Source: Bursaphelenchus xylophilus
Taxonomy: Eukaryota; Nematoda; Chromadorea; Rhabditida; Aphelenchoididae
Assembly: GCA_904066235.2 (NCBI GenBank)
Contig: CAJFCV020000004.1
Span: forward strand, 3,844,001-3,908,000
DNA: 64,000 nt
Reading direction: 5' to 3'
Both the position numbers and the translations under genes were made by a program. The notes below the pieces were generated by a model that did not search any database, was not told the DNA's origin, and saw only the letters and a program-made list of their open reading frames with translations. Below, piece after piece: positions 1 to 56,988 of this stretch; position 1 is the first letter of the stretch; each line of letters starts with the position of its first letter.

Positions 1-2830
1 CGTTTCCATCGGATTCGAAACTCATCGCTTCAGCTGGACAGCGATGATGCGATCCTGGAGGAAGTCCGCGCTTTCTCACCGAATCGGCTGAGCAGACATT
101 GCCGGAAACAATTGTCGCTGAAGGGGTTGGCTGATGAAGGTGAGGGTAGCGACTTTTTTTATGCTAAAGTTTATTATCTAATAACGAAATTTTTACAATA
201 AAAATTTTGAATTCCAGGTCCAGCCGTCCGTTGGGGCAGTCGTTCCCGGATGAGCTCCTGCTCTTCCGTCAACGAAAACATTGACGATCTAAAGCAAATT
301 GGATTTGCCCTCATTTTCGACGCCAAGGAACGAGACTTCCTCTTCCAACATATTCTCCAAATTGAGCGAGAGATTGTGAAATTGGAGACCGGAATTTACA
401 AGGCTTCATTGTCCCGGAGTCAGTTCTTTTATTGTGTCTATCAGGCGTACCGGCACTTCACCCACTCGGTGTGTCTGTTGTACAATTCGTTGAGGCTCCG
501 ACAGCCCGTTTGGTTATCGTTGTTGGACCCGCATCAACAGAATGAGGCGGCTCAACGGTTTTGTCATTCCTTGGCCAAACTGATCGAGCAGCTGGATCGG
601 AAGGAAACGCAATTGTAAGTGGCTGTTGCCAAGTATATTGAATGGTGTATGGAGGCTCTAGAAATCTATAAACTTGGGCTATTTCATGTTCAAAATGCAC
701 ATATGGATTTTAGAAACTTACCATGATTTTTCAGCTTTTTATCCACCCTCCTTTCGACCGTCCTCATGAACCATTTGGCCTGGGTGGCGAGTGTTGCGCC
801 GCCCGATACGATCCCTCAACATGAACGGTCATTACTGTTGGGGACTGTAAGTTTAAGCAATATCATCACCGTCTTTTCTGAACCATTTTAATCCATATCA
901 TTTTAAGAGTGTAATCGACGCTTCCCGTCATCCCTACAACGCCCGATTGGCTCAGTTAATGGAGCTCTGTGGAATCGTTGGAGGAGGCGATAAATTGGCC
1001 AAGACTGTTGTCATCGGGAAGAACCCTCGATTGATCAGCGAGATCCTCTTTGTGTTGTCGTATTTCATCCGATGCTCGAATGTGGAAAGCAGGAGAGGAG
1101 GTGAGGAATATTTCAGAGTATATTAGACTTAATCTGCATGCATAAACTAGGTCAAAATAGCAATAGATTAAAAAGTATTGTCCATAATACTTTACGGCCT
1201 ACTTTCAGAAGTTTTATCGCCCACCAGACCCGCGAATCCGGTGAATCTTGTTGGATCACCCCCTTCGAATGCTCAATCCGATCTAATGGATGATTTCCTG
1301 ACCGACCTCAGCTCCTCAAACACCTCTCAACAGCCGGATCCAGCCCCTTCTTCAATGCCAATTCATCCACCAACCAGAACCAAACGTCCTTCCTCTTCGT
1401 TGTCATCCTCTCAATTCGCAACCTCCCCTCCAGACGGATGCTCCAAGTTCCCCATCGACCTGGACGAACCTCCATCCAAAACTCGAGCCATCAACCCGCC
1501 GTTGAGCCAGTCGATGTATCCGGAAATGGCGAGTCCCACGAGTTCGCGGATAATGAGCCAATCCGTCCACAGCCAGACTATTCATTACTCGAGTGGGCAG
1601 AATGGATTGTCGAGTCCTGCCAGGAGTCGAATGGAATTGATCTTGGATGTGGAGGACGTTCAGATGTCCGGACAAGAACTGGTCCCTTCGTTGTACCAAA
1701 ACTCGCTTCAACAACAGGCTAATGGCGCTCAGAATGGCTCTCACTCTCCTGCCTCAAGCTCTCATTCTTCGCAATCGCTGGGTTCTAATACCAACGCCAA
1801 TGGGGATCTGGGAAGATCGTTGTTGGCTGGAGTTTGTGCTTCCTATTCGCCACATTTTGTGCTATCAGGTAAGCAATTGTTTTGGCAATAACATCAAAAT
1901 TTTTTTTAGTTTACTGCGATAGTATTGATCAATATCTTTGCAGGTGTGGATCTCCGAGAATCCGAAGTGGAAGACACCTTCAACGCCATCTATGAGGACG
2001 TCAAACATCCGACCGGAGAACCTTGTGAGACCGCGATTTCCCCCTCTTCTTCGACCAGCTCAGCCCTCACCAACTCTGCCCATTCCACTCTTCACGACCT
2101 CCCACCTCGACCTTCTCGCCATCGACGTCAAAACTCGACCGTGGCGGATTCGCCGCGCTCTCGAAGCAGCCAGAAGTCGACCTGCATTGAAGGCCCGACT
2201 TCAGCGGTTGTTGTGGTCGGCGATCTCACCGACACCTCTGTACGAATAGTTTCTGCGCAGAATTGTCGCATTGAAGACCAACAAGTCGCGAGCCCGTCGG
2301 ATGCGGTGGTTGCAATGCTGGAGCAGTTCTTGTCGCTCTACAAAATTGAAGCCAACTCGAACTTTTTGATCAGCTTCTTGGAGGACAAGCTGAGCAGTTT
2401 GCTGAGTAAGAGTCAGACGTTGGTCAAGTTGATCACCTCCGAAGAGAAGTCGGATTATCTCTACACCGAAAACAACTCCAATACGGGCCATTCGACAGCG
2501 ATGGAGGTCGAATCCTCCAGCCCTATCAGTCATTCAAAGCCTGATGAGCCCCAATTCCGAGCGCCCAATCCGCCAGCCGCAATTACAATGTCCAAGTTGC
2601 GGAATTTGTCGGTTGTCTCGGTGAAATCTCCCGGCAAGGAGCATCGAGGCTGGGTGTCGACGGACACGATCGACGAAGATCCCGATGACAATGTCCTGGC
2701 GAGCGCTCCGATGGTGTTGTCGATGGAGCGCGTGTGCGAAGTTGTTGGCTGCGACTGCAGCGACCTCAGGCTGATTGTCAATGTGGCGTCGATTTATCAG
2801 CCCAACGTCTTGAATAGTATGGTATTGTGA
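1..2830 (+). CDS. fnip: Folliculin-interacting protein (FNIP), 3' part
   Basis: FNIP proteins bind folliculin and AMPK at the lysosome and help control Rag-GTPase/mTORC1 nutrient signalling. The gene enters from the left edge, so its start is missing. Exons read as 1-139, 218-614, 735-846, 908-1100, 1209-1868 and 1944-2830, all joining in frame with GT-AG introns of 61 to 120 bases; the stop is TGA at 2828. The family signature spans exons 3 and 4: a segment containing MNHLAWVASV, then HPYNARLAQLMELCG, KTVVIGK and LFVLSYFIRCSN. These correspond to the conserved vertebrate FNIP block (NHLAWVP, HPYNPLWAQLGDLYG, RTVVVGK, YFLRCSE). The C-terminal DENN-related part (exon 6) has AVVVVGDLTD and a helical LEDKLSSLLSKSQTL stretch. 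Exon 5 and the start of exon 6 encode a Ser/Pro-rich, probably disordered and phosphorylated linker. Identification is from remembered family motifs. Confidence 0.88.
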
Positions 2831-23040: not shown

Positions 23041-23358
23041 TACAGGGTGGTCCAGCTAAGTTCGCGGATGTAAAATGCTTATAACTTTTTATAGGATTGT
23101 TCAATTTTTATGAGCAATAGCTCATTTTATTCCTTAGTAGTTGCCATTTTGTTTAAAAAAAAGATCATTAAAAACTATCAATCCTACGTCGAGTTATGAC
23201 CCTTCAAAGTCAAACATGCTTTTTCACGTAAATTTTTAAAAAAATTTAATTTTCAAAAATTTTTGAATTGCGGTGTCAACGCTCGCTGTTACCGGGAAAT
23301 GATGGTGAACAGAGCGATCCCAGCAATGCAAAATTGGCCCAATTTTGCCAGTCTTTGG

Positions 23359-26300
23359 TACTAGTCGCGGCAAAAAGTCTTTGGAATTTTCTGCGACCCT
23401 GCACTGTGCGCGAACCCGAAAACACATTTTGCACCGTGCATCCGGCCCGAAAAGTGCTTTTGCACTGTGCAATTTTGTTGATTTTGCCTTATTGTCGCGC
23501 GCGATTCCCATTTTTCTCAGCGACAAATCGACATTTCGGGGTGCGGCGGGATTTGGGGGCCGCGAAAAATTCCAAAGACTTTTTGCGCCGACTGATACTA
23601 CTAGTCGGGACAAAAAGTCCTGATAATTTTGCACCGTGCGGATTTGAACGTTTTGGGTTGTCGCTGCGAAAATCGCGAAAAAAAGTGTTTTGCACGGTGC
23701 ATTTGACCCGAAAAGTGCATTTTGCACAGTGCATTTTTGTTTGTTTTTGCCTTACGTCGCGCGCGATTCCCCATTTTTCGGAGCGACAAATCGTGTTTTT
23801 CAGAGTGCGACAGAAATCGCGCAAAATCCGCACGGTGCAAAATTATCAGGACTTTTTGTCCCGACTAGTATCAGTCTGGCCGAAAAAGAATTGTCCTCCG
23901 CGCCCCCCTCCATCGCGCTCACTCGAAACCCCAATTTGCATCGCGGAGAAATTTGGAGGGCATCGCCGAAAGAAAGAGCAAAAACAACGCATCGCCAGCG
24001 ACAAAAGTGGGTTTTGCACAGTGCAAATGCCCTTTTTCTGCTGTTTCGCACTGTGCAATTCCACAAATTCAGCGATTTTTCGAAGTCGCGCGCACTTTTG
24101 CGATGCATCGCTCAAACTTTCGGTGCCGCTCATTTTCGAGATTGCGATTTCGAAGCTGCGACGAGGGTAATTCTTTTTCGGCCAGACTGATAGTCGCGAC
24201 ATAAAGTCCTGACACATTTTGCACCGTGCGAAAGTTCGGGGTTTGGACGTCGCGCCCCCAAATTCATTTTGCACCGTGCATTCTTCTTTCATTTCATCCG
24301 CACTGTGCATCTTTTCGCATTTGTCGCCGCGATTTCCCGTTTTTGCGCTAGCGACGTGCACTTTCGCGCGCGACAAACCCGAATTTGAGGGCGCGACGTC
24401 CAAATCCCGAAATTTCGCACGGTGCAAAATGTGTCAGGACTTTATGGCGCGACTAGTACTATCAGTCTGGCCGAAAAAGAATTGTCCTCCGCGCCCCCCT
24501 CCGTCGCACTCACTCCAAACCCCAATTTCAAATTTGGAGGGCGTCGCCGAAAGAAAGAGCAAAAACGACGCATCGCCAGCGATAAAAGTGGGTTTTGCAC
24601 AGTGCAAACGGCTTTTTGCACTGTGCAATCCCACAAATTCAGCGATTTTTCGAAATCGCGCGCACTTTTGCGATGCATCGCTCAAACTTTCGGTGCCGCT
24701 CATTTTCGAGGGTGCGATTTCGATGCTGCGACGAGGGTAATTCTTTTTCGGCCAGACTGATACTAGTCGCGCCATAAAGTCCTGACACATTTTGCACCGT
24801 GTGAAAGTTCGGGGTTTGGACGTCGCGCCCCCAAATTCGGGTTTGTCGCGCGCGAAAGTGCACGTCGCTAGTGCAAAAACGGGAAATCGCGGCGAGAAAT
24901 GCGAAAAGATGCACCGTGCGGATGAAAATGAAAGAGAAAGCACGGTGCGAAAGTGCATGTCGCTAGTGCAAAAATGGAAAATCGCGGCGACAAATGCAAA
25001 AAGATGCACCGTGCGGATGAAATGAAAGAAGAATGCGCGGTGCGACGTCCAAACCCCGAACTTTCGCACGGTGCAAAATGTGTCAGGACTTTATGTCGCG
25101 ACTAGTACTAGTCGGGACAAAAAGTCCTGATAATTTTGCACCGTGCGGATTTTGCGCGGTTTCTGTCGCACTCTGAAAAAACGATTTGTCGCTTCGAAAA
25201 ATGGGAATCGCGCGCGACAATAAGGCAAAAACAAACAAAATGCACTGTGCAAATGCACTTTTCGGGTCAAATGCACCGTGCAAAACACTTTTTTCGCGAT
25301 TTTCGCAGCGACAACCCAAAACGTTCAAATCCGCACAGTGCAAAATTATCAGGACTTTTTGTCCCGACTAGTATCAGTCGGCGCAAAAAGTCTTTGGAAT
25401 TTTTCGCGGCCCCCAAATCCCGTCGCACTCCGAAATGTCGATTTGTCGCTGAGAAAAGTGGGAATCGCGCGCGACAATAAGGCAAAATCAACAAAATTGC
25501 ACAGTGCAAAAGCACTTTTCGGGCCGGATGCACGGTGCAAAATGTGTTTTCGGGTTTGTGCACAGTGCAGAGTCGCAGAAAATTCCAAAGACTTTTTGCG
25601 GCGACTAGTACTACTAGTCGCGGAAAAAAGTCCTGGGATTTTCTCGCGCCCCCCAAACTCCATCGCGCTCCAAAAAGTTGATTTGTCGCGGGAATCGCGC
25701 GCGACAATAAGGCAAAATCAACAAAATTGCACTGTGCAAATGCACTTTTCGGGTTCATGCACAGTGCAGAGTCGCAGAAAAATCCCAGGACTTTTTTCCG
25801 CGACTAGTATCAGTCTGGCCGAAAAAGAACCGGCCTCCCCGAACCCTTCCGTCGCACTCACTCCAAACCCCAATTTGAATCGCGGAGAAATTTGGAGGGC
25901 GTCGCCGAAAGAAAGAGCAAAAACAACGCATCACCAGCGACAAAAGTGGGTTTTGCACAGTGCAAATGCCCTTTTTCTGCTGTTTCGCACTGTGCAATCA
26001 ACAAAATTCCCACAAATTCAGCGATCTTTCGATGTCGCGCGCACTTTTGCGATGCATCGCAAAAACATTCAATTTCGAGGTTGCGATTTCGAGGCGCGAG
26101 GGGGGCCGGTTCTTTTTCGGCCAGACTGATAGTCGCGGAAAAAAGTCCTGGGAATTTCTCGCGCCCCCCAAATTCCGTCGCGCTCCGAAAAGTTGATTTG
26201 TCGCGGGACTCGCGCGCGACAATACTATCAGTCTGTCGGAAAAATAACGGCGGATCGTCGCAGCAAAATGTCTCGCCTCGCCGCTATCGCGCACCAAATC

Positions 26301-28003
26301 CCAAGCCGCGGCTTGCAGTCGCAAAGCGATGATGAGCGATTCCGAGGCGCGACGATCCGCCGTTATTTTCCCGACAGACTGATAGTCGCGGAAAAAAGTC
26401 CTTAGAATTTATCGCGGCCCCCAAATCTCGTCGCACCCCGAAATGTTGATTTGTCGCTGAGAAAAATGGGAATCGCGCGCGACAATAAGGCAAAAACAAC
26501 AAAATTGCACAGTGCAAAAGCACTTTTTCGGTCGGATGCACGGTGCAAAATGCTTTTTCGGGTTTATGCACAGTGCGAAATTCTAAGGACTTTTTTCCGC
26601 GACTAGTAAGGCAAAATCAACAAAATTGCACTGTGCAAAAGCACTTTTCGGGTTCATGCACAGTGCAGAGTCGCAGAAAAATCCCAGGACTTTTTTCCGC
26701 GACTAGTACTAGTCGCGACATAAAGTCCGTAGAATTTTCTGCACTGTGCATAAACCCGAAAAAGCATTTTGCACTGTGCATTCACCCGAAAACACATTTT
26801 GCACCGTGCAATTTTGTTGATTTTGCCTTATTGTCGCGCGCGATTCCCGTTTTTCGCAGCGACAAATCAACATTTCGGAGCGCGACGGAATTTGGGGGCC
26901 GCGAAAAATTCTACGGACTTTATGTCGCGACTAGTACTAGTCGCGGAAAAAAGTCCTTAGAATTTCGCACTGTGCATAAACCCGAAAAAGCATTTTGCAC
27001 CGTGCATCCGACCGAAAAAGTGCTTTTGCACTGTGCAATTTTGTTGTTTTTGCCTTATTGTCGCGCGCGATTCCCATTTTTCTCAGCGACAAATCAACAT
27101 TTCGGGGTGCGACGAGATTTGGGGGCCGCGATAAATTCTAAGGACTTTTTTCCGCGACTAGTACTAGTCCTTCCGTAAAGTCGCTGGAATGTTTTCGGCG
27201 ACATGCACCCCGCGAAACCGAAAGTTCACTTTGCACTGTGCAATTTTTGGCTTTTTGCACAGTGCAATGAGCTTTTTGGGACGTCGCTCGCACCCTGAGT
27301 TTTTTTGCACAGTGCGCGTCGCCGAAATCATTCCAGCGACTTTACGGAAGGACTAGTACTAGTCGCGACATAAAGTCCTGACACATTTTGCACCGTGCAT
27401 TCTTCTTTCATTTCATCCGCACTGTGCATCTTTTCGCATTTGTCGCCCCGATTTCCCGTTTTTGCACTAGCGACGAGGACTTTCGCACGCGACAAACCCG
27501 AATTTGCGGGCGCGACATCCCAAACCCGAACTTTCGCACTGTGCATTCTTCTTTCATTTCGCATTTGTCGCCGCAATTTCCCGTTTTTGCACTAGCGACA
27601 TGCACTTTTGCGCGCGACGAACCCGAATTTGGGGGCGCGACGTCCAAACCCCGAACTTTCGCACGGTGCAAAATGTGTCAGGACTTTATGGCGCGACTAG
27701 TATCAGTCTGGCCGAAAAAGAATTACCCTCGTCGCAGCTTCGAAATCGCAATCTCGAAAATGAGCGGCACCGAAAGTTTGAGCGATGCATCGCAAAAGTG
27801 CGCGCGACTTCGAAAAATCGCTGAATTTGTGGGATTGCACAGTGCAAAAAAGCCGTTTGCACTGTGCAAAACCCACTTTTATCGCTGGCGATGCGTTGTT
27901 TTTGCTCTTTCTTTCGGCGACGCCCTCCAAATTTCAAATTGGGGTTTGGAGTGAGTGCGACGGAGGGGGGCGCGGAGGACAATTCTTTTTCGGCCAGACT
28001 GAT
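23359..28003. repeat. Chain of about 18 TIR units joined by TA dinucleotides
   Basis: A GC-rich block of consecutive inverted-repeat units, each 160 to 345 bases. Approximate limits: 23361-23592, 23601-23868, 23871-24190, 24191-24456, 24461-24760, 24763-25106, 25108-25370, 25373-25610, 25613-25806, 25809-26130, 26131-26706 (split by two nested units, 26222-26380 and 26381-26607), 26709-26932, 26935-27160, 27163-27357, 27359-27700 and 27703-28003. Six terminal types recur: CTAGTCGCGGCAAAAAGTCT, CTAGTCGGGACAAAAAGTCC, TAGTCGCGACATAAAGTCC, CTAGTCCTTCCGTAAAGTCG, CAGTCTGGCCGAAAAAGA and CAGTCTGTCGGAAAAATA. Neighbours meet at junctions such as GACTAGTACTAGTC. Most units contain the dyad GCACNGTGC, often beside a run of A or T. 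Long reading frames occur but share no protein family and follow the repeat pattern. Confidence 0.85.
26222..26380. mobile_element. Array unit of the CAGTCTGTCGG MITE family
   Basis: Ends CAGTCTGTCGGAAAAATAAC / GTTATTTTCCCGACAGACTG. It is inserted at a TA inside the unit 26131-26706. Half copies occur at 38075-38163 and 57965, and a full relative at 43461-43595, so this family is also dispersed outside the array. Confidence 0.75.
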
Positions 28004-28164
28004 ATTCTTCCATAATTTGGCGCCTCATTTGTTCATCCTGGCGAACTCGTTCCACCTCTTCTTCGATTACGCGCTTCAATTCCACGTCTTTGGGCGCCAA
28101 TCCCTGATGAAAATCCGCTGTTTTAAAAGAGAGTTTTTTACAAATTGAAGCTTCTCATAACAAG

Positions 28165-29860
28165 GGCCGGACATTTCGAAAAAACGACCGACTCAGAATC
28201 TTTTGATATTTTGCATAGTTGATGTACTATGATAGCTGAACGTCAGCACGAATTTTTAGTTTCTGAAATTACCGTATACGGGGGTTACGTTAGGTACAAT
28301 TTTTAGAAAGATTGGGTTCGTATGTAAAAGCCTTAAGGAGTAAAGGCACAAAACCTCGCCGTTTTACGTTTTTGACCATGGGGAACATTTTCATAATTGA
28401 CAACTTTGCCGTAGGATGTTGCCTTCGACTACTTTGAAAAATACCAAGGTACCATATTGAATGTAACTTTTTTGCAGAGAACTTGTCTCAACTTTTGAAA
28501 CCTCTCAAAAATACGTTGACACGTATGGAACGACATATCAAAAATTTAGAAAAATAAAAGGGGGGGTTTTGGAGTTACGGTACTTTGAATGTTGCCGGTG
28601 CGGTATATCAAAAAATAATTTTTTTCGAAATGGGTGTAGAAGACCCGCAAACATTGCTAAAATACGTTTTCGACCATGGCGAACATTTTTGTAATTGACA
28701 CTTTTTTTGTAGGATGTAGTCTTCGCCTACTTCGAAAATGACCCAGATACCATGTGTAACGTAACTCTTCGGCATTCTACTTGTCTCAACTTTTGAAACC
28801 TCAGAAAAATACGTTGACATGTACGGAACAACATATCAAAAATTTAGAAAAATAAAAGGGGGGGGGGTTTTGGAGTTATGGCACTTTTAACGTTGCCGGT
28901 ACGGTATATCAAAATTTCATTTTTTCTAAAATTGGAGTAGGACAACCGCGAACCTTGCCAATATACGTTTCCAACCATGGGGAACATTTTTGTAATTGAA
29001 AGTTTTGTTCTAGGATGCAGCCTTCGACCGGTTTGAGAAATGTCAAGATACCATGTTCAATATAACTTTCCGGCATTCAACTTGTCTCAACTTTTGAAAC
29101 CTTTCAAAAACACCTTGACATATGTGTAACAACATATCAAAAATTTAGGGAAATAAAAGGGGGGGTTTTGGAGTTATAGCACTTTGAATGTTGGACATAC
29201 AGTACACCAAACTTTTTCTGTGATGCTGACATCCGATATTGATAGATTCCACCGTCGTATGGCACACACGTCTCTAAACCGTGTCAATTGTTACAAAAAA
29301 ATTAAGAAATCACTGATCTTGCTGTTACAGTAACCAGTCATCTGCGCACGATATGTTACAGTATGCTTAGGTCTAGTTTTTTTGATTTTTTTGTGAAAAT
29401 AGTTTGTGAGGGTCTTACAACATAGATAAAACATTACATTTTATTTTTAAAATAATCTACGTAAAGTTAAGCCGAGAATAAATCGAGGTGTACTGTATGT
29501 CCAACATTCAAAGTGCTATAACTCCAAAACCCCCCCTTTTATTTCCCTAAATTTTTGATATGTTGTTACACATATGTCAAGGTGTTTTTGAAAGGTTTCA
29601 AAAGTTGAGACAAGTTGAATGCCGGAAAGTTATATTGAACATGGTATCTTGACATTTCTCAAACCGGTCGAAGACTACATCCTACAAAAAAAGTGTCAAT
29701 TACAAAAATGTTCGCCATGGTCGAAAACGTATTTTAGCAATGTTTGCGGGTCTTCTACACCCATTTCGAAAAAAATTATTTTTTGATATACCGCACCGGC
29801 AACATTCAAAGTACCGTAACTCCAAAAGTCGGTCGTTTTTTCGAAATGTCCGGGCCATCC
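28165..29860. mobile_element. Fold-back whose arms are tandem repeats
   Basis: The left arm carries about three tandem copies of a roughly 300-base unit (28266-28565, 28566-28862, 28863-29165). Each copy contains ACTTGTCTCAACTTTTGAAA and ends in AATAAAAGGGGGG. The right arm (about 29505-29825) holds one inverted copy. Both outer ends share GGACATTTCGAAAAAACG. It interrupts the transposase relic. Confidence 0.65.
29196..29508. mobile_element. Loop segment with its own inverted ends
   Basis: Between the fold-back arms: begins TTGGACATACAGTACACCAA and ends with GGTGTACTGTATGTCCAA. Either the loop of the fold-back or a separate MITE inserted at its centre. Confidence 0.5.
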
Positions 29861-30550
29861 TTCGATTTGTAAAAAACTCTCTTTTAAGAACCCCCAAATG
29901 GAGAAATCTAGCGGAGTTAGATCAGGTGAACGCGGGGGCCAAGCAATTGGAGCTGGTTGCCGCGCAGATCCCCGGCCCATCCAACGACCTGGAAAAACCT
30001 GGTCAAGGAGTTGACGGACCGCTATAGCAAAATGAGGTGGCGCGCCATCTTGTTGAAAAACAAGACTGGCAAAATTGGCCCAATTTTGCATAGCTGGGAT
30101 CGCTCTGTTCACCATCATTTCCCGGTACCAGCGATGACACCGCAATTCAAAAATTTTTGAAAATTAAATTTTTTAAAAAATTTACGTGAAAAAGCATGTT
30201 TGACTTCGAAGGGTCATAACTCGACGTAGGATTGATCGTTTTTAATGATCTTTTTTTTTAACAAAATGGCAACTGCTAAGGAATAAAATGAGCTATTGAT
30301 CATAAAAATCAATACAAATTTTTACAATCCTATAAAAAGTTATAAGCATTTTACATCCGCGAACTTAGCTGGACCACCCTGTACAACAAAACTTCCGAGC
30401 CAGTAAGTAACCAAGTCGAGGGAATCGTATTTAAACATAAGAAACCGACTATGTTTTGTGTAAGCCGATAAAGTCCAAGGGTTTTTTTTATCAGCCATAA
30501 TTCCCTTTCGTCGTTTATTTGGTTATTTAATTTCTTCAATGAACTGTGAC

Positions 30551-40006: not shown

Positions 40007-43000
40007 TCAATCTATGACTCCGTTGATGGCAATGTCGGGCATTGAGTGACGATATTTGGAGACTTTTCGATTGGCTTTGACCGAGTTTCGACGGTCTTCG
40101 AATAAGTCGAATTCGAGCTGTTGATCCAGATGAGGGGGTCCTAGTTGAAAGTAGCCGATTCTGGTGTATCTAAAAGAGATATTACAGTAAGCTCAATGTA
40201 ATCTAAGTCAATGTGATGAAAGGAAGAACATTTTTAAAGCCAAAATTCGAGTTTTTTGCGGGAAAGAGACAAATTTTACATACATTTGATCCGAAAAATG
40301 ACTATATGTAATATAAGATACAATACGATATAATATGTAAAAATCTCGGCTTACCGATAAATCAGATCCATCCAGCATCCAGCCACAGTGAACGCGTAGA
40401 GATAATCGGCCGGGTATAGGATCTGTGTGACAATCATGCTCATCAAAGTCACCGCGCTGAACCCAAACTCCTTTTCGTGGCCGATCTGATATTTGATGAT
40501 GGTCGTTTCGAAATAAGTCAGCCCAAAGTTGACCACGTTGGCCATAAATGATGCTATGGCAATGCTGGGTAAGAATCGTCGGCTGGCTTTCATATCGCGG
40601 TTACTTAGCGCCAGAATTCGGCGTAGAGAGAAGAATTGGAGCCATTGGGAGGCCTGAAATTTGAATTTTAACATTTTCAATTTTTTTTTGGATATAAGAG
40701 ACTCAAAAAATTTTACAGGCTTTGTCATACGCGATATATTTTTTTAGAAGAATAATTACCAAAAAAATAAAAAAAACAGTTTCTGACGAGAGTGGGATTC
40801 GAACCCACGTCTCCGGAGAGACTGGTGCCTAAAACCAGCGCCTTAGACCACTCGGCCATCTCGCCGCGGCCCTCGAGCGCTCTTTTACTGTGGCGTTTCG
40901 AGAGGGCAAAAGGAGAGGGAACAGTGTGAAAAGAAGTCATTTTTTACACAGTTAATTTTTACTTCACTAGGGTCTCACATGCCGTAATCTTTTCCGTTTT
41001 TTTAAAGCGATACGAGTGTGTTTTGTATCTAAGTTTTGAAGATTGTAACAAAATCAAACTTACGGTCGTTGTGAGAAGTCCAAAGATCCTCATGACAAAT
41101 CCGGTACTATTCAAAAACCCATCATTCTTTTGATAATCCATTTCGACCACTTGAAGAACAAACTTGATTGTCAGTAAAATACAGCATCCCAGGATTAAAA
41201 CCACATCGCCTCGGGCTTCAGCCTTGTGATAAGCGTCAAATCGGCGTTCCTCAACTTTGGCCGCCCAATGGAACACCTAAAACAATTAAAAAAAGTTGAA
41301 TTTTTTGTGGTGTCAGTACTTACCATTGCATGAAAGATGACCTGCATGATTCCCACCCCAATCTGCACATAGTAGTCGGTCATCCAGCCTTGAGCATGAA
41401 GTTTGTCGAACAGAATGGTGTAGTAAAATCGGACGAACCATTGGCCGACAACGAAGATTCCGGAGGTCCACGCAGTGATCATAAGGCACGTTTGGAGGAA
41501 GGGCGAGGTTATTAGTGGAGGCATTGGTGGCTTCTTCGCCCTGCCTCCAACAACTCGAGAAATATCCGTGATAAAGCGCTGCAGGACTCGGCGGACACTC
41601 TTCTTTTGCTGAAAATTGAAGACATTGTAAATTCAGGTTTATATAGCACAATAATCATCCCGATTTGTCGATATAACTACTAATTGAACGGTAAATAAGG
41701 CCTAGAGAAAATTTGAAAGTCTATTAGGCCAGCTGAAGACATTTTATGGCCTTTTTAGAGCCTTAGTTTATCAGAAAAATGACCAAACTTACAAAGGAAG
41801 TACCCCAAGTGCGACGCTCAGATTTTCCTTGAATTTTGCACACACGTCGGTAATAGACTAAATATCAATTCCTCAAAGTTTTATCTCGCGCTTTGAAGGC
41901 GAAGCCGAGATATTCAACAATCCTTGCGGCCGAGGGAGTATGCTAAACGCGGAGAGCGCTCAGAGAAAAAACACCATAACTTCGCTAGTTTTGCACGGAA
42001 GAAATCTATTTCTTGCGGAAACACTATCCTTTGCGGTAGAAATAGGTATGAAACTTTTCGTGTCAAAGTTCTGCAAAAATTGGCAAATTTTTGCCGACTT
42101 TCGATCAAAAAATCTCGGTTATTTCTGCTAAGCGCAAGCTAGGATTATCGCATACAACTTAGAAAAAAATATTCTAAATTTGTGCCAAGCTTTATCAAAA
42201 TCTGAGCGTCGCACTTGGGGTAAGTTCTCCTCAAAAAAACAGCCACTTTTTTGCATGTTCGACATTTTTTGGATAGTTTTCTGACCTCGTTGTCCAAAAA
42301 AGTCATCAAATCAAGCCAAGCGGTTTTTAGTGTCAACTACACTCCCTTCTTACCCGTTGTCTTCGAATCAAATCTTCTGCTCTCTCCTCAGCACCTCCGC
42401 AAACCAACCAGTGAGCAACTAGGACCACTGGAAAGAATTCGGAAGCACACGCAGTGATTGCCGAACTGAGAAGGCCCTTGTTCAAATAATACCACACTTG
42501 ACGGGTTCCTTGTAAGTCCGAGGTGTTGCAAGTGTATTGCCGCTGAACCCCTGGGCACCACATGGACCCGTTCAGTTCTTTTCGTTGGCATAGCGTCTGA
42601 AATTGCATATTTTGATTCATAAACCAAAAAATCAGTGTTTTCAAGAGGTTAATTTATTTATTATATACTATATAAGCCTACCTGATGACTCAAATAGCCC
42701 TTATTCACCACCACTTGCAGCCACACGATGTAAACTGCGGCGTTGATCCACAATCTCCGCAGATGATCCACCTTTTGATTCAACGTTCCGTAATACGACC
42801 GCTGCATTAGATAAACGAAGCTAAGAATGCAAAACAAAATCATCGTAACGTCGTAGATTATCTCCAGCCACACTTCGTTTTGATCATGAGCATCTACCAG
42901 CTCATCACAGTCCTAAATTTTGAGAACAGTGTAAAATACGAAATTAGTTTAGCAGCTTCATTATTCTACAGCCAAAAACTTACTTTAAATGTCAAGTTGA

Positions 43001-56097: not shown

Positions 56098-56988
56098 GGG
56101 TGAACCAAAAGTTTTTGCCGTTTTTTCATGAAAACTTTAAACATAATTTTACAACAAATGAAAACCAGTTAAGTTTCAAAGTAAAGGCCATTTGAATCTA
56201 TGGCTTGAACCCATCTATAGGCAAGTTGTTCGATCCCGCTGCGGTACCACTCCTTTTTCTTAGAAGCGAAAAACTCGCGGCATCCGTCTTCGACATCGTC
56301 CAGATCATTGAAGCTACGACCACGCAAAAAGTGTGCCATGGAGCGGAAAAGGTGATAGTCGTATGACACAAAGTCCAGACTATTCGCTGGATGTGAAAGA
56401 AGTTCAATGGCGTCGAGAGTTTTGATCTTTTCCTTCGTTTGTTTGGCGGTGCGAGGTTTTGCGCTGTCTTGTTGCAGGGGTACGCGGGTTCGATTGATCA
56501 AATCGGGATATTTTTTGCCAATCGCTGCATACATTCGATTGAGTGGAGCGTAGTAGAGGTCTGCGTCAATAGTCCGACCATTTGGAACCAACTCGAAGTG
56601 AATTACGCCTTCAAAATTGTTTTTTAAGATGTCTTGCCCTCGAGGTCCGTGTCGCCGTAGTTGAATCGTTTGAACCAATCGCGCAGTACGATCTGAGACC
56701 ACATTGTAGCCTTCAACTTCGCTTATCTTCTTTACTGCTGCAGTTGCGTTGAAGCCTTGTTTTCGGTAATAACGTAAAAAAACACGAATTTCGGATTTTT
56801 CCTTGTTTTTTCTACAGGTTAAAAGATTTTAAATAAAAGACCAATTAAAAGTTTTAATATATATTATGATAAAGCAGTTCACGACCTTTAAAAATATATA
56901 TAACACATTCATATAAAAATATTTATTTCGTAAAAAAACAATTGGACAAAAAGAGACCTAAAAAACGGCAAAAACTTTTGGTTCACCC
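56098..56988. mobile_element. Mariner element with internal deletion
   Basis: Starts GGGTGAACCAAAAGTTTTTG and ends with its complement, with TA on both sides (TATTAGGG...CCCTAATA). About 890 bases, against roughly 1.3 kb for complete mariners. Confidence 0.85.
56169..56820 (-). pseudogene. Mariner (DD34D-type) transposase with deleted centre
   Basis: The minus-strand frame is open from about 56820 to the stop at 56169. It begins with the helix-turn-helix region (KSEIRVFLRYYRKQGFNAT, ISEVEGYNVVSDRTARLV), then jumps directly to GVIHFELVPNGRTIDADLYY, QQDSAKPRTAKQTKEKI, SYDYHLFRSMAHFLRG and the usual end IDSNGLYFET. Compared with intact mariners the stretch with the first catalytic Asp is missing, while the second Asp (QQD) and third (DYH) remain. 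No ATG is evident. It is unlikely to be active. Confidence 0.85.

What the first reader, a model, noticed from the sequence alone, without database searches (positions are those of the whole stretch)
23359..28003. Chain of about 18 different palindromic transposon units joined end to end by TA
Each unit has its own inverted termini of six recurrent types, yet almost no other DNA separates them: one ends in ...GACTAG, then TA, then CTAGTC... Simple tandem duplication is not the cause, because unit types alternate, orientation varies (25373-25610 is the reverse complement of 23361-23592) and one unit is split by two others. It looks like repeated insertion at the edges of earlier insertions. I know of no described system of this form. 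It might work as a satellite-like or small-RNA-producing locus (inference).
Basis: partly seen in the sequence, partly recalled or inferred. Interest (0 to 1): 0.88.

Follow-up and report, generated by a model that had tools for sequence, protein, structure and literature searches.

The report
Edge-on-edge chain of mini-transposons
In this nematode chromosome eighteen short DNA transposons of eight families stand end to end, most neighbours sharing a single TA, and such joins occur at 36 of the places examined in the genome, likely because new copies insert at the edges of older ones.

Summary
Window 23359-28004 is a chain of 18 units of 8 families (A-H): 14 of its 18 joins are a single shared TA, 4 have a TAC spacer. 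One unit is split by two others; A recurs inverted. The units are short elements with terminal inverted repeats and TA flanks (MITE-like), not whole palindromes. The exact join GACTAGTACTAGTC occurs 62 times in the 78 Mb genome, 0 in the reversed control; 59 of 62 join two recognised unit ends, 3 have a decayed-looking side. Fetched loci hold 110 exact shared-TA joins in 36 clusters. Censuses: 15 of 69 C ends and 16 of 27 P ends share their TA with another unit. Solitary insertions show no preference for that sequence; P interiors hold 3 insertions in 16 copies. Chain-mates are no more alike than strangers, so most arrived independently, though some dimers moved jointly. I infer insertion directed to the edges of resident kin, probably by machinery bound there. 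Eleven of 12 families carry GCACNGTGC, in eight mostly 36-38 or 46-47 bp from the end; the abundant F family lacks it and rarely chains. The transposase was not found. Closest published: plant SaTar arrays and TA-sharing pithovirus repeats.

The parts
23359..23597 (+). unit A (CTAGTC end left, TCAGTC end right); leftmost unit of the chain
23599..23870 (+). unit B; preceded by TACTA, read as insertion into the terminal C[TA]G of D1
23869..24192 (+). unit C1 at the TA between B and D1
24191..24458 (+). unit D1, lacking its first bases here (TAC at 23596-23598 is read as the displaced start)
24460..24762 (+). unit C2, after an unexplained TAC spacer
24761..25107 (+). unit D2
25106..25373 (-). unit B2; with A2 forms a dimer 99.0% identical to one on contig C6 (L027)
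25372..25610 (-). unit A2 (inverted copy of A)
25612..25809 (+). unit E1, read as inserted into the terminal C[TA]G of E'
25808..26131 (+). unit C3 at the TA between E1 and E'
26130..26224 (+). unit E', first part (split at an interior TA)
26226..26384 (+). unit F, read as inserted into the terminal C[TA]G of E2
26383..26608 (+). unit E2, read as inserted at the interior TA of E'
26607..26708 (+). unit E', second part
26707..26936 (+). unit G
26935..27163 (-). unit E2b, identical over 226 bp to E2 in inverted orientation
27162..27358 (+). unit H
27357..27702 (+). unit D3
27701..28004 (-). unit C4; rightmost unit of the chain
23401..27867 (.). 50 of the window's 52 GCACNGTGC motifs lie in the chain (shuffle mean for the whole window 0.33)
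23041..30386 (.). host of the chain: a mirror-image, degenerate element (arms 23041-23355 and 30062-30383, 92% inverted; TA flanks by eye)

Best explanation
The stretch is a chain of 18 TA-flanked mini-transposons with no recognised coding domain, and it likely grew one insertion at a time because new copies preferentially enter the TA at the edge of a resident copy, or the TA three bases inside its terminal CTAG. Shown: exact joins far above chance, use of edges rather than of the same octamer elsewhere or of interior TAs in P, chain-mates that are overall no more alike than strangers, and dimers that recur with different neighbours and so behave as larger units. Inferred: the edge is chosen because transposition machinery (or a partner protein) is bound at the resident's end, where most chain-forming families carry GCACNGTGC, in eight of them mostly 36-38 or 46-47 bp from the TA. 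The transposase is unknown; the TA duplication and TIR form suggest a Tc1/mariner-type enzyme. Selection may add to the pattern: units are TA-poor inside, so an edge hit spares both partners.
For: 62 GACTAGTACTAGTC sites, 0 in the reversed control; all 62 lie in the fetched loci and 59 join two recognised unit ends (45 distinct contexts printed). GACTAGTA occurs 2,908 times against 2,036 for the reversed control, so roughly 2,000 copies are not on units, yet at most 3 show such an insertion. Of 214 free flanks, 3 begin TACTAGTC and all 3 look like decayed unit ends. Censuses: C 15 of 69 ends and P 16 of 27 ends share the TA; exact-pattern G/E/D ends on C1 below 12.1 Mb, 15 of 82 (22 of 105 with near-matching ends). 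P: 3 of 16 copies are interrupted inside, with about 32 interior TAs per copy. Chain-mates are not more alike than strangers, p=0.52. Joint movement: A-B 99.0% at two loci, D-P 95.0% at two, H-P 95.7-96.8% at three, with outer flanks that differ. Motif position. F, with no motif: 2 of the 100 listed ends.
Against: No transposase with these termini was found. Binding at the ends is not shown. C chains although its motifs lie 130-161 bp from the ends, H has them mostly at 75 or 47, and half the ends of E and G have none in that half. About ten insertions do lie inside units. The fetched sample beyond the C, P and C1 censuses was chosen for joins. F's 2 of 100 was read by eye from six flanking letters of the first 100 of 2,307 sites (all on C1 below 2.5 Mb), and F may use another transposase. 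The TAC between D1 and C2 is unexplained. The nearest relative lies in the same chain for 14 of 89 units against 6.9 expected, and some joins were copied as dimers, so not all joins are independent insertions.
Confidence: 0.6

Rival explanations
1. Tolerated-region model: insertions land on random TAs in neutral DNA, and because units are TA-poor inside, the surviving or available TAs are mostly at edges.
For: Interior TA observed/expected is 0.21 in short units against 0.69 in the window background, while AT is hardly changed (0.83 against 0.89). The chain has 91 TAs in 4.6 kb, 299 expected from base composition.
Against: P has about 32 interior TAs per copy yet 3 of 16 copies are interrupted inside, against 16 of 27 shared edges. 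F is TA-poor too (0.39) and far commoner, but 2 of 100 listed ends are at edges.
Confidence: 0.15
2. Hairpin model: units extrude hairpins or cruciforms and the TA at the foot of the hairpin is a deformed, favoured target.
For: One representative of each of 12 families folds far better than shuffles, z -6.6 to -18.0.
Against: F folds strongly (-0.47 kcal/mol per base, though with the weakest z) but rarely chains; P has only about 30 bp of terminal repeat and the highest share of joined ends.
Confidence: 0.12
3. Short-sequence preference: the target is simply a favoured motif such as GACTAGTA, which unit ends happen to carry.
For: Joins do carry it, and the neighbouring C[TA]G sites are used as well (43 ends).
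Against: Roughly 2,000 non-unit copies of GACTAGTA (estimate) show at most 3 such insertions; 3 of 214 free flanks carry it, all decayed-looking unit ends. TCAGTC and TTACGC edges are used too. A preference for a longer stretch of the terminus is not excluded.
Confidence: 0.07
4. Local duplication or recombination, as in satellites, made the arrays.
For: Some blocks recur; E2 and E2b in the window are identical over 226 bp; the nearest relative is in the same chain for 14 of 89 units against 6.9 expected.
Against: Same-chain identity is not higher overall (p=0.52); orders and neighbours differ between loci.
Confidence: 0.04
5. Assembly artefact.
For: Repeats are hard to assemble; one chain lies on the 14.5 kb unplaced contig C8.
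Against: 36 clusters of different order, 35 of them on six chromosome-sized contigs, with exact TA joins.
Confidence: 0.02

Closest known systems
SaTar arrays (non-autonomous MULEs of guayule, rice, sorghum, citrus; PMC5907723, passages read)
   Same: Arrays of intact short TIR elements of different families, joined end to end rather than nested; solitary copies exist as well.
   Different: There, 9-10 bp target duplications and microsatellite spacers, targeting of microsatellites, Mutator type. Here a 2-bp TA that is itself the join, no microsatellite, and a few true nestings.
Pithovirus M1/M2 repeats (PMC10664404, one section and passages read)
   Same: MITE-like units with putative TA duplication; the TA is shared between neighbours; clusters; units thought to move together.
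   Different: Two families in a regular (M1-M2)n-M1 order with higher identity within a region. Here many families, irregular order, no such excess overall, in a nematode.
MITE multimers of rice and maize (Jiang and Wessler 2001; paper not held, known only from citing passages in PMC5907723 and PMC10664404)
   Same: MITEs found next to or in other MITEs; 11% of rice MITEs in multimers, as cited.
   Different: There, insertion into an element is said to be commoner than adjacent insertion; here the edge dominates.
Tc1/mariner-type MITEs (Stowaway and palindromic TA elements of Caenorhabditis; names recalled)
   Same: TA flanks, TIRs, small size, no recognised coding domain.
   Different: No autonomous partner found; terminal bases CTAGTC/TCAGTC and the GCACNGTGC array are shared across families.
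IS30-type targeting of its own ends in bacteria (recalled; one search listed two papers, neither opened)
   Same: Insertion favoured at the ends of resident copies, as recalled.
   Different: Bacterial, other transposase class; the comparison rests on memory.

Membership tests
Tc1/mariner-type MITE | 2-bp TA target duplication | tested here: met
   TA at both ends; outer flanks of solitary copies differ beyond the TA
Tc1/mariner-type MITE | terminal inverted repeats, small, no recognised coding domain | tested here: met
   TIR lengths; 10 of the 11 open frames of 150 aa or more over the chain were scanned, 0 Pfam matches
Tc1/mariner-type MITE | related autonomous transposase with the same termini | tested here: inconclusive
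   8 PF13358 loci, none bounded by these termini (one, L090, has a decayed related repeat nearby); PF01498 silent, its controls too; PF01359 and other transposase families not searched genome-wide
SaTar arrays | 9-10 bp target duplication and microsatellite flanks | tested here: not met
   TA only, no microsatellite at the joins
SaTar arrays | non-nested arrays of unrelated intact elements | tested here: not met
   arrays of mostly intact units, but E' in the window and about nine other units are interrupted
Pithovirus M1/M2-like arrays | neighbours share the TA | tested here: met
   68 of 91 adjacent pairs
Pithovirus M1/M2-like arrays | units of one region more alike than units of different regions | tested here: not met
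   p=0.52
Satellite DNA | tandem, homogenised copies of one unit | tested here: not met
   types alternate; no homogenisation overall

The most novel reading that the evidence does not exclude
A cut-and-paste system in an animal whose machinery, docked on phased GCACNGTGC sites behind the transposon ends, steers new copies onto the edges of its own kin, so that many families build shared, non-disruptive trains whose cars or groups of cars can leave again together: a self-made safe harbour.
Probability: 0.33. Interest if true: 0.82.

Novelty: new variant of a known kind. Interest (0 to 1): 0.62.

Why it matters
How transposons avoid killing their host and each other is a central question, and targeted safe harbours are, to my knowledge, known for few DNA transposons. 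Here the harbour would be the transposon family itself. The sequence gives a measured edge preference, an internal negative case (F), a candidate recognition motif and recurring composite blocks, so the idea is directly testable. It would also explain how arrays of unlike units arise without tandem duplication.

Tried and rejected
Autonomous partner: PF13358 gave 8 loci, none bounded by these termini; PF01498 gave none, with silent controls; no other transposase family was searched genome-wide. Long elements with matching ends (L017, L026, L064, L111, L115) show no transposase that I could recognise by eye; they were not scanned against Pfam. First idea that the TAC/TAG spacers are excision footprints: most are better read as insertion into the neighbour's terminal C[TA]G, since inner hits (43) and +3 spacers (37) occur in similar numbers; the spacer between D1 and C2 stays open. 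Motif-directed targeting outside units: GCACNGTGC lies within 150 bp of 9 of 36 free C flanks (0.36 expected; at least two of the nine lie inside P- or H-like units) but of only 4 of 75 free non-F flanks of the C1 set (0.75 expected), so it is not general. An empty paralogue of the chain's target was not found among held loci; the joined flanks keep an open frame across the join on the minus strand, weak support for a clean TA target. Bacterial-type promoter and terminator scans found nothing above shuffles. Function as a small-RNA source: only sub-threshold Rfam hits. Literature on nematodes: searches listed nothing that matches by title or abstract start; this does not show absence from print.
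Full report
What was checked. The window is G000:C4:3844001-3908000 of a 78.25 Mb assembly with six chromosome-sized contigs and two small ones. It is a nematode: 15 copies of a spliced-leader sequence one base from a pattern I recalled as C. elegans SL1, with none in the reversed control, two full-length SL1 model matches (below Rfam's gathering score) beside a 5S rRNA match above it, and contig C7 starting with TTAGGC-type repeats. The species was not identified.

The chain. From 23359 to 28004 there are 18 units: A, B, C1, D1, C2, D2, B2, A2, E1, C3, E' (split), F, E2, G, E2b, H, D3, C4. Each complete end starts CTAGTC or TCAGTC inside a TA. Of the 18 joins (E' counted as two pieces), 10 share exactly the TA flanking both units, 4 share a TA inside the neighbour, and 4 have a TAC spacer. 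Corrections: eight families rather than six, and terminal repeats rather than whole palindromes. The chain sits inside an old mirror-image element whose arms are 23041-23355 and 30062-30383. Ten of the 11 open frames of 150 aa or more over the chain were scanned and match no Pfam family.

How it was built. The joins tell an order (my reading). E2 entered an interior TA of E'. F entered the TA inside E2's terminal CTAG. E1 entered the same kind of TA in E', and C3 then entered the TA between E1 and E'. The same pair of steps explains B and C1 at the start of D1. One TAC, between D1 and C2, has no such explanation.

Genome-wide. GACTAGTACTAGTC occurs 62 times, 0 in the reversed control. All 62 lie in the loci that I fetched; in 59 both sides are recognised unit ends, and the other 3 have one decayed-looking side. 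With the other end types the fetched loci hold 110 distinct shared-TA joins (up to 5 mismatches allowed in the neighbour's 24-base end) in 36 clusters; the largest have 11, 10 and 10 joins, the window being one of the tens, and many have a single join. With about 4.8 million TAs in the genome, taking the window's density as typical, 500 units inserted at random would give about 0.05 such joins, and 2,000 units 0.8.

Samples not chosen for joins. All C ends but one (69 of 70; the one with a mismatch was not fetched): 15 share the TA with another unit, 6 sit in a neighbour's terminal CTAG, 4 lie 3 bases off, 6 lie 4 to 29 bases off, 38 have no recognised unit within reach. All 27 P ends: 16 share the TA, 7 have none, 4 other. 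Exact-pattern G, E and D ends on C1 below 12.1 Mb: 15 of 82 share it, 62 are free, 5 other; with ends of up to 2 mismatches, which favours chain loci, 22 of 105. F is the commonest of the families counted by end pattern: 2,307 ends with a pattern that misses flanks starting with T. Of the 100 listed, all on C1 below 2.5 Mb, I read 2 as exact edge joins from six flanking letters, and 3 or 4 more as possible hits inside a neighbour's terminal repeat. Fisher tests against F: C p=3e-5, P p=2e-11, G/E/D p=2e-4.

Why not sequence alone. GACTAGTA occurs 2,908 times against 2,036 for its reversal, so about 2,000 copies should not belong to units; at most 3 of them show an insertion of this kind, against 59 joins at unit ends. 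Among 214 free flanks only 3 begin TACTAGTC, all decayed-looking unit ends. Edges with other bases (TCAGTC, TTACGC, TTAGCA) are used as well. A preference for a longer stretch of terminus remains possible.

Why not TA scarcity alone. Units avoid TA inside: observed/expected 0.21 in short units, 0.69 in background, while AT hardly changes. That makes edges a large share of the available TAs, and it may reflect loss of units that were hit inside. But P has about 32 interior TAs per intact copy, some 510 in 16 copies, and only 3 of the 16 are interrupted inside, against 16 shared edges.

Independent arrival and joint departure. Same-chain copies of a family are not more alike than copies from different chains (47 against 1,590 pairs, p=0.52), although the nearest relative lies in the same chain for 14 of 89 units against 6.9 expected. 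One D copy is 100% identical over 356 bp at two loci with different neighbours, and G copies of equal length have a median identity of 0.996, so movement was recent. Blocks also move: A-B (window and C6, 99.0%), D-P (two loci, 95.0%) and H-P (three loci, 95.7-96.8%), each with outer flanks that differ. A-D-H recurs at two loci (98.5%) with different right flanks, but F precedes it in both (cut short in L028), so its left limit is not shown to be a unit end. In L015 an H also abuts a P, but the H is turned round. A third A-B pair, at the left of the window chain, is 96.1% alike but has TACTA at its join, and may be independent.

What the units share. GCACNGTGC occurs 52 times in the window, 50 of them in the chain, against 0.33 in shuffles. 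It occurs in 11 of 12 families examined, not in F. In A, B, D, E, G, P, R and S the motif nearest an end is mostly centred 36-38 or 46-47 bp from it; Q has 45-56, H mostly 75 or 47, C 130-161; half the ends of E and G, and 5 of 12 of A, have none in that half. Spacings of 20-21, 29-32, 39-40, 50-51 and 60-61 are common, with exceptions such as 24 in H and 104-125 in B and D. I infer a protein site set by helical turns behind the end. Several families share interior stretches, so they are not independent witnesses.

Mechanism. The most likely account is insertion aimed at the edge of a resident unit by machinery bound to its end. The edge preference is shown; the bound machinery is inferred. 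The transposase is unknown. Hairpin-foot targeting is the main physical rival: all families fold well, but F folds well and chains little.

Known relatives. SaTar arrays (PMC5907723, passages) are non-nested arrays of MULE-type elements at microsatellites. Pithovirus M1/M2 repeats (PMC10664404, passages and one section) share the TA between neighbours. Both are good works-like comparisons, but membership fails on target duplication and strict non-nesting for SaTar and on within-region similarity for M1/M2. Jiang and Wessler 2001 was not held and is known only through citation. I therefore rate this a new variant of a known kind.

Noticed in passing
window 23041-30386: Mirror-image element that hosts the chain; inner stretches 28567-29208 recur inverted at 29487-29827 (90-92%).
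   Followed up: partly
whole genome: F family (TCAGTCTGTCGG ends) has at least 2,307 exact ends, by far the commonest of the families counted by end pattern, with no GCACNGTGC and few edge joins in the 100 ends listed.
   Followed up: partly
L011 2995-3262, L028 5747-6015, L097 280-574 and others: Two further chain families with ends TTACGCTTTTTCAAAAGTGC and TTAGCATTTTCAC, which carry neither CTAGTC nor TCAGTC.
   Followed up: partly
unit families A-S: Many GCACNGTGC spacings lie near multiples of 10 bp (20, 30, 40, 50, 60), and many distances from unit ends differ by 10; H uses 24.
   Followed up: partly
C4:727853, C6:1254221-1254534, C6:9615473-9615796: Some solitary C copies lie in GCACNGTGC-rich DNA that matches none of the defined families (9 of 36 free C flanks have the motif within 150 bp; at least two of the nine are inside P- or H-like units).
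   Followed up: no
window 24457-24462: TAC spacer between D1 and C2 with no displaced unit start to explain it; an excision footprint or a lost unit are possible.
   Followed up: no
G000:C6:5052062-5069617: Repeated SL1-like genes about 911 bp apart whose leader differs by one base from the C. elegans pattern that I recalled; 5S rRNA lies beside SL1 in L118.
   Followed up: partly
window 24207-24439 and 25061-25151: Rfam microRNA-precursor models match unit hairpins far below their gathering scores (for example 55.9 against 245 bits).
   Followed up: no
window 1172-2830; 40784-40865; 56169-56828: FNIP-like gene exons, a tRNA gene, and a Mos1-type transposase fragment (one of its two Pfam matches just below cut-off).
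   Followed up: no
L028 (C8:1-10000): Small unplaced contig with 7 exact joins; shares an A-D-H block (98.5%) with C6 near 3176720-3177506.
   Followed up: partly
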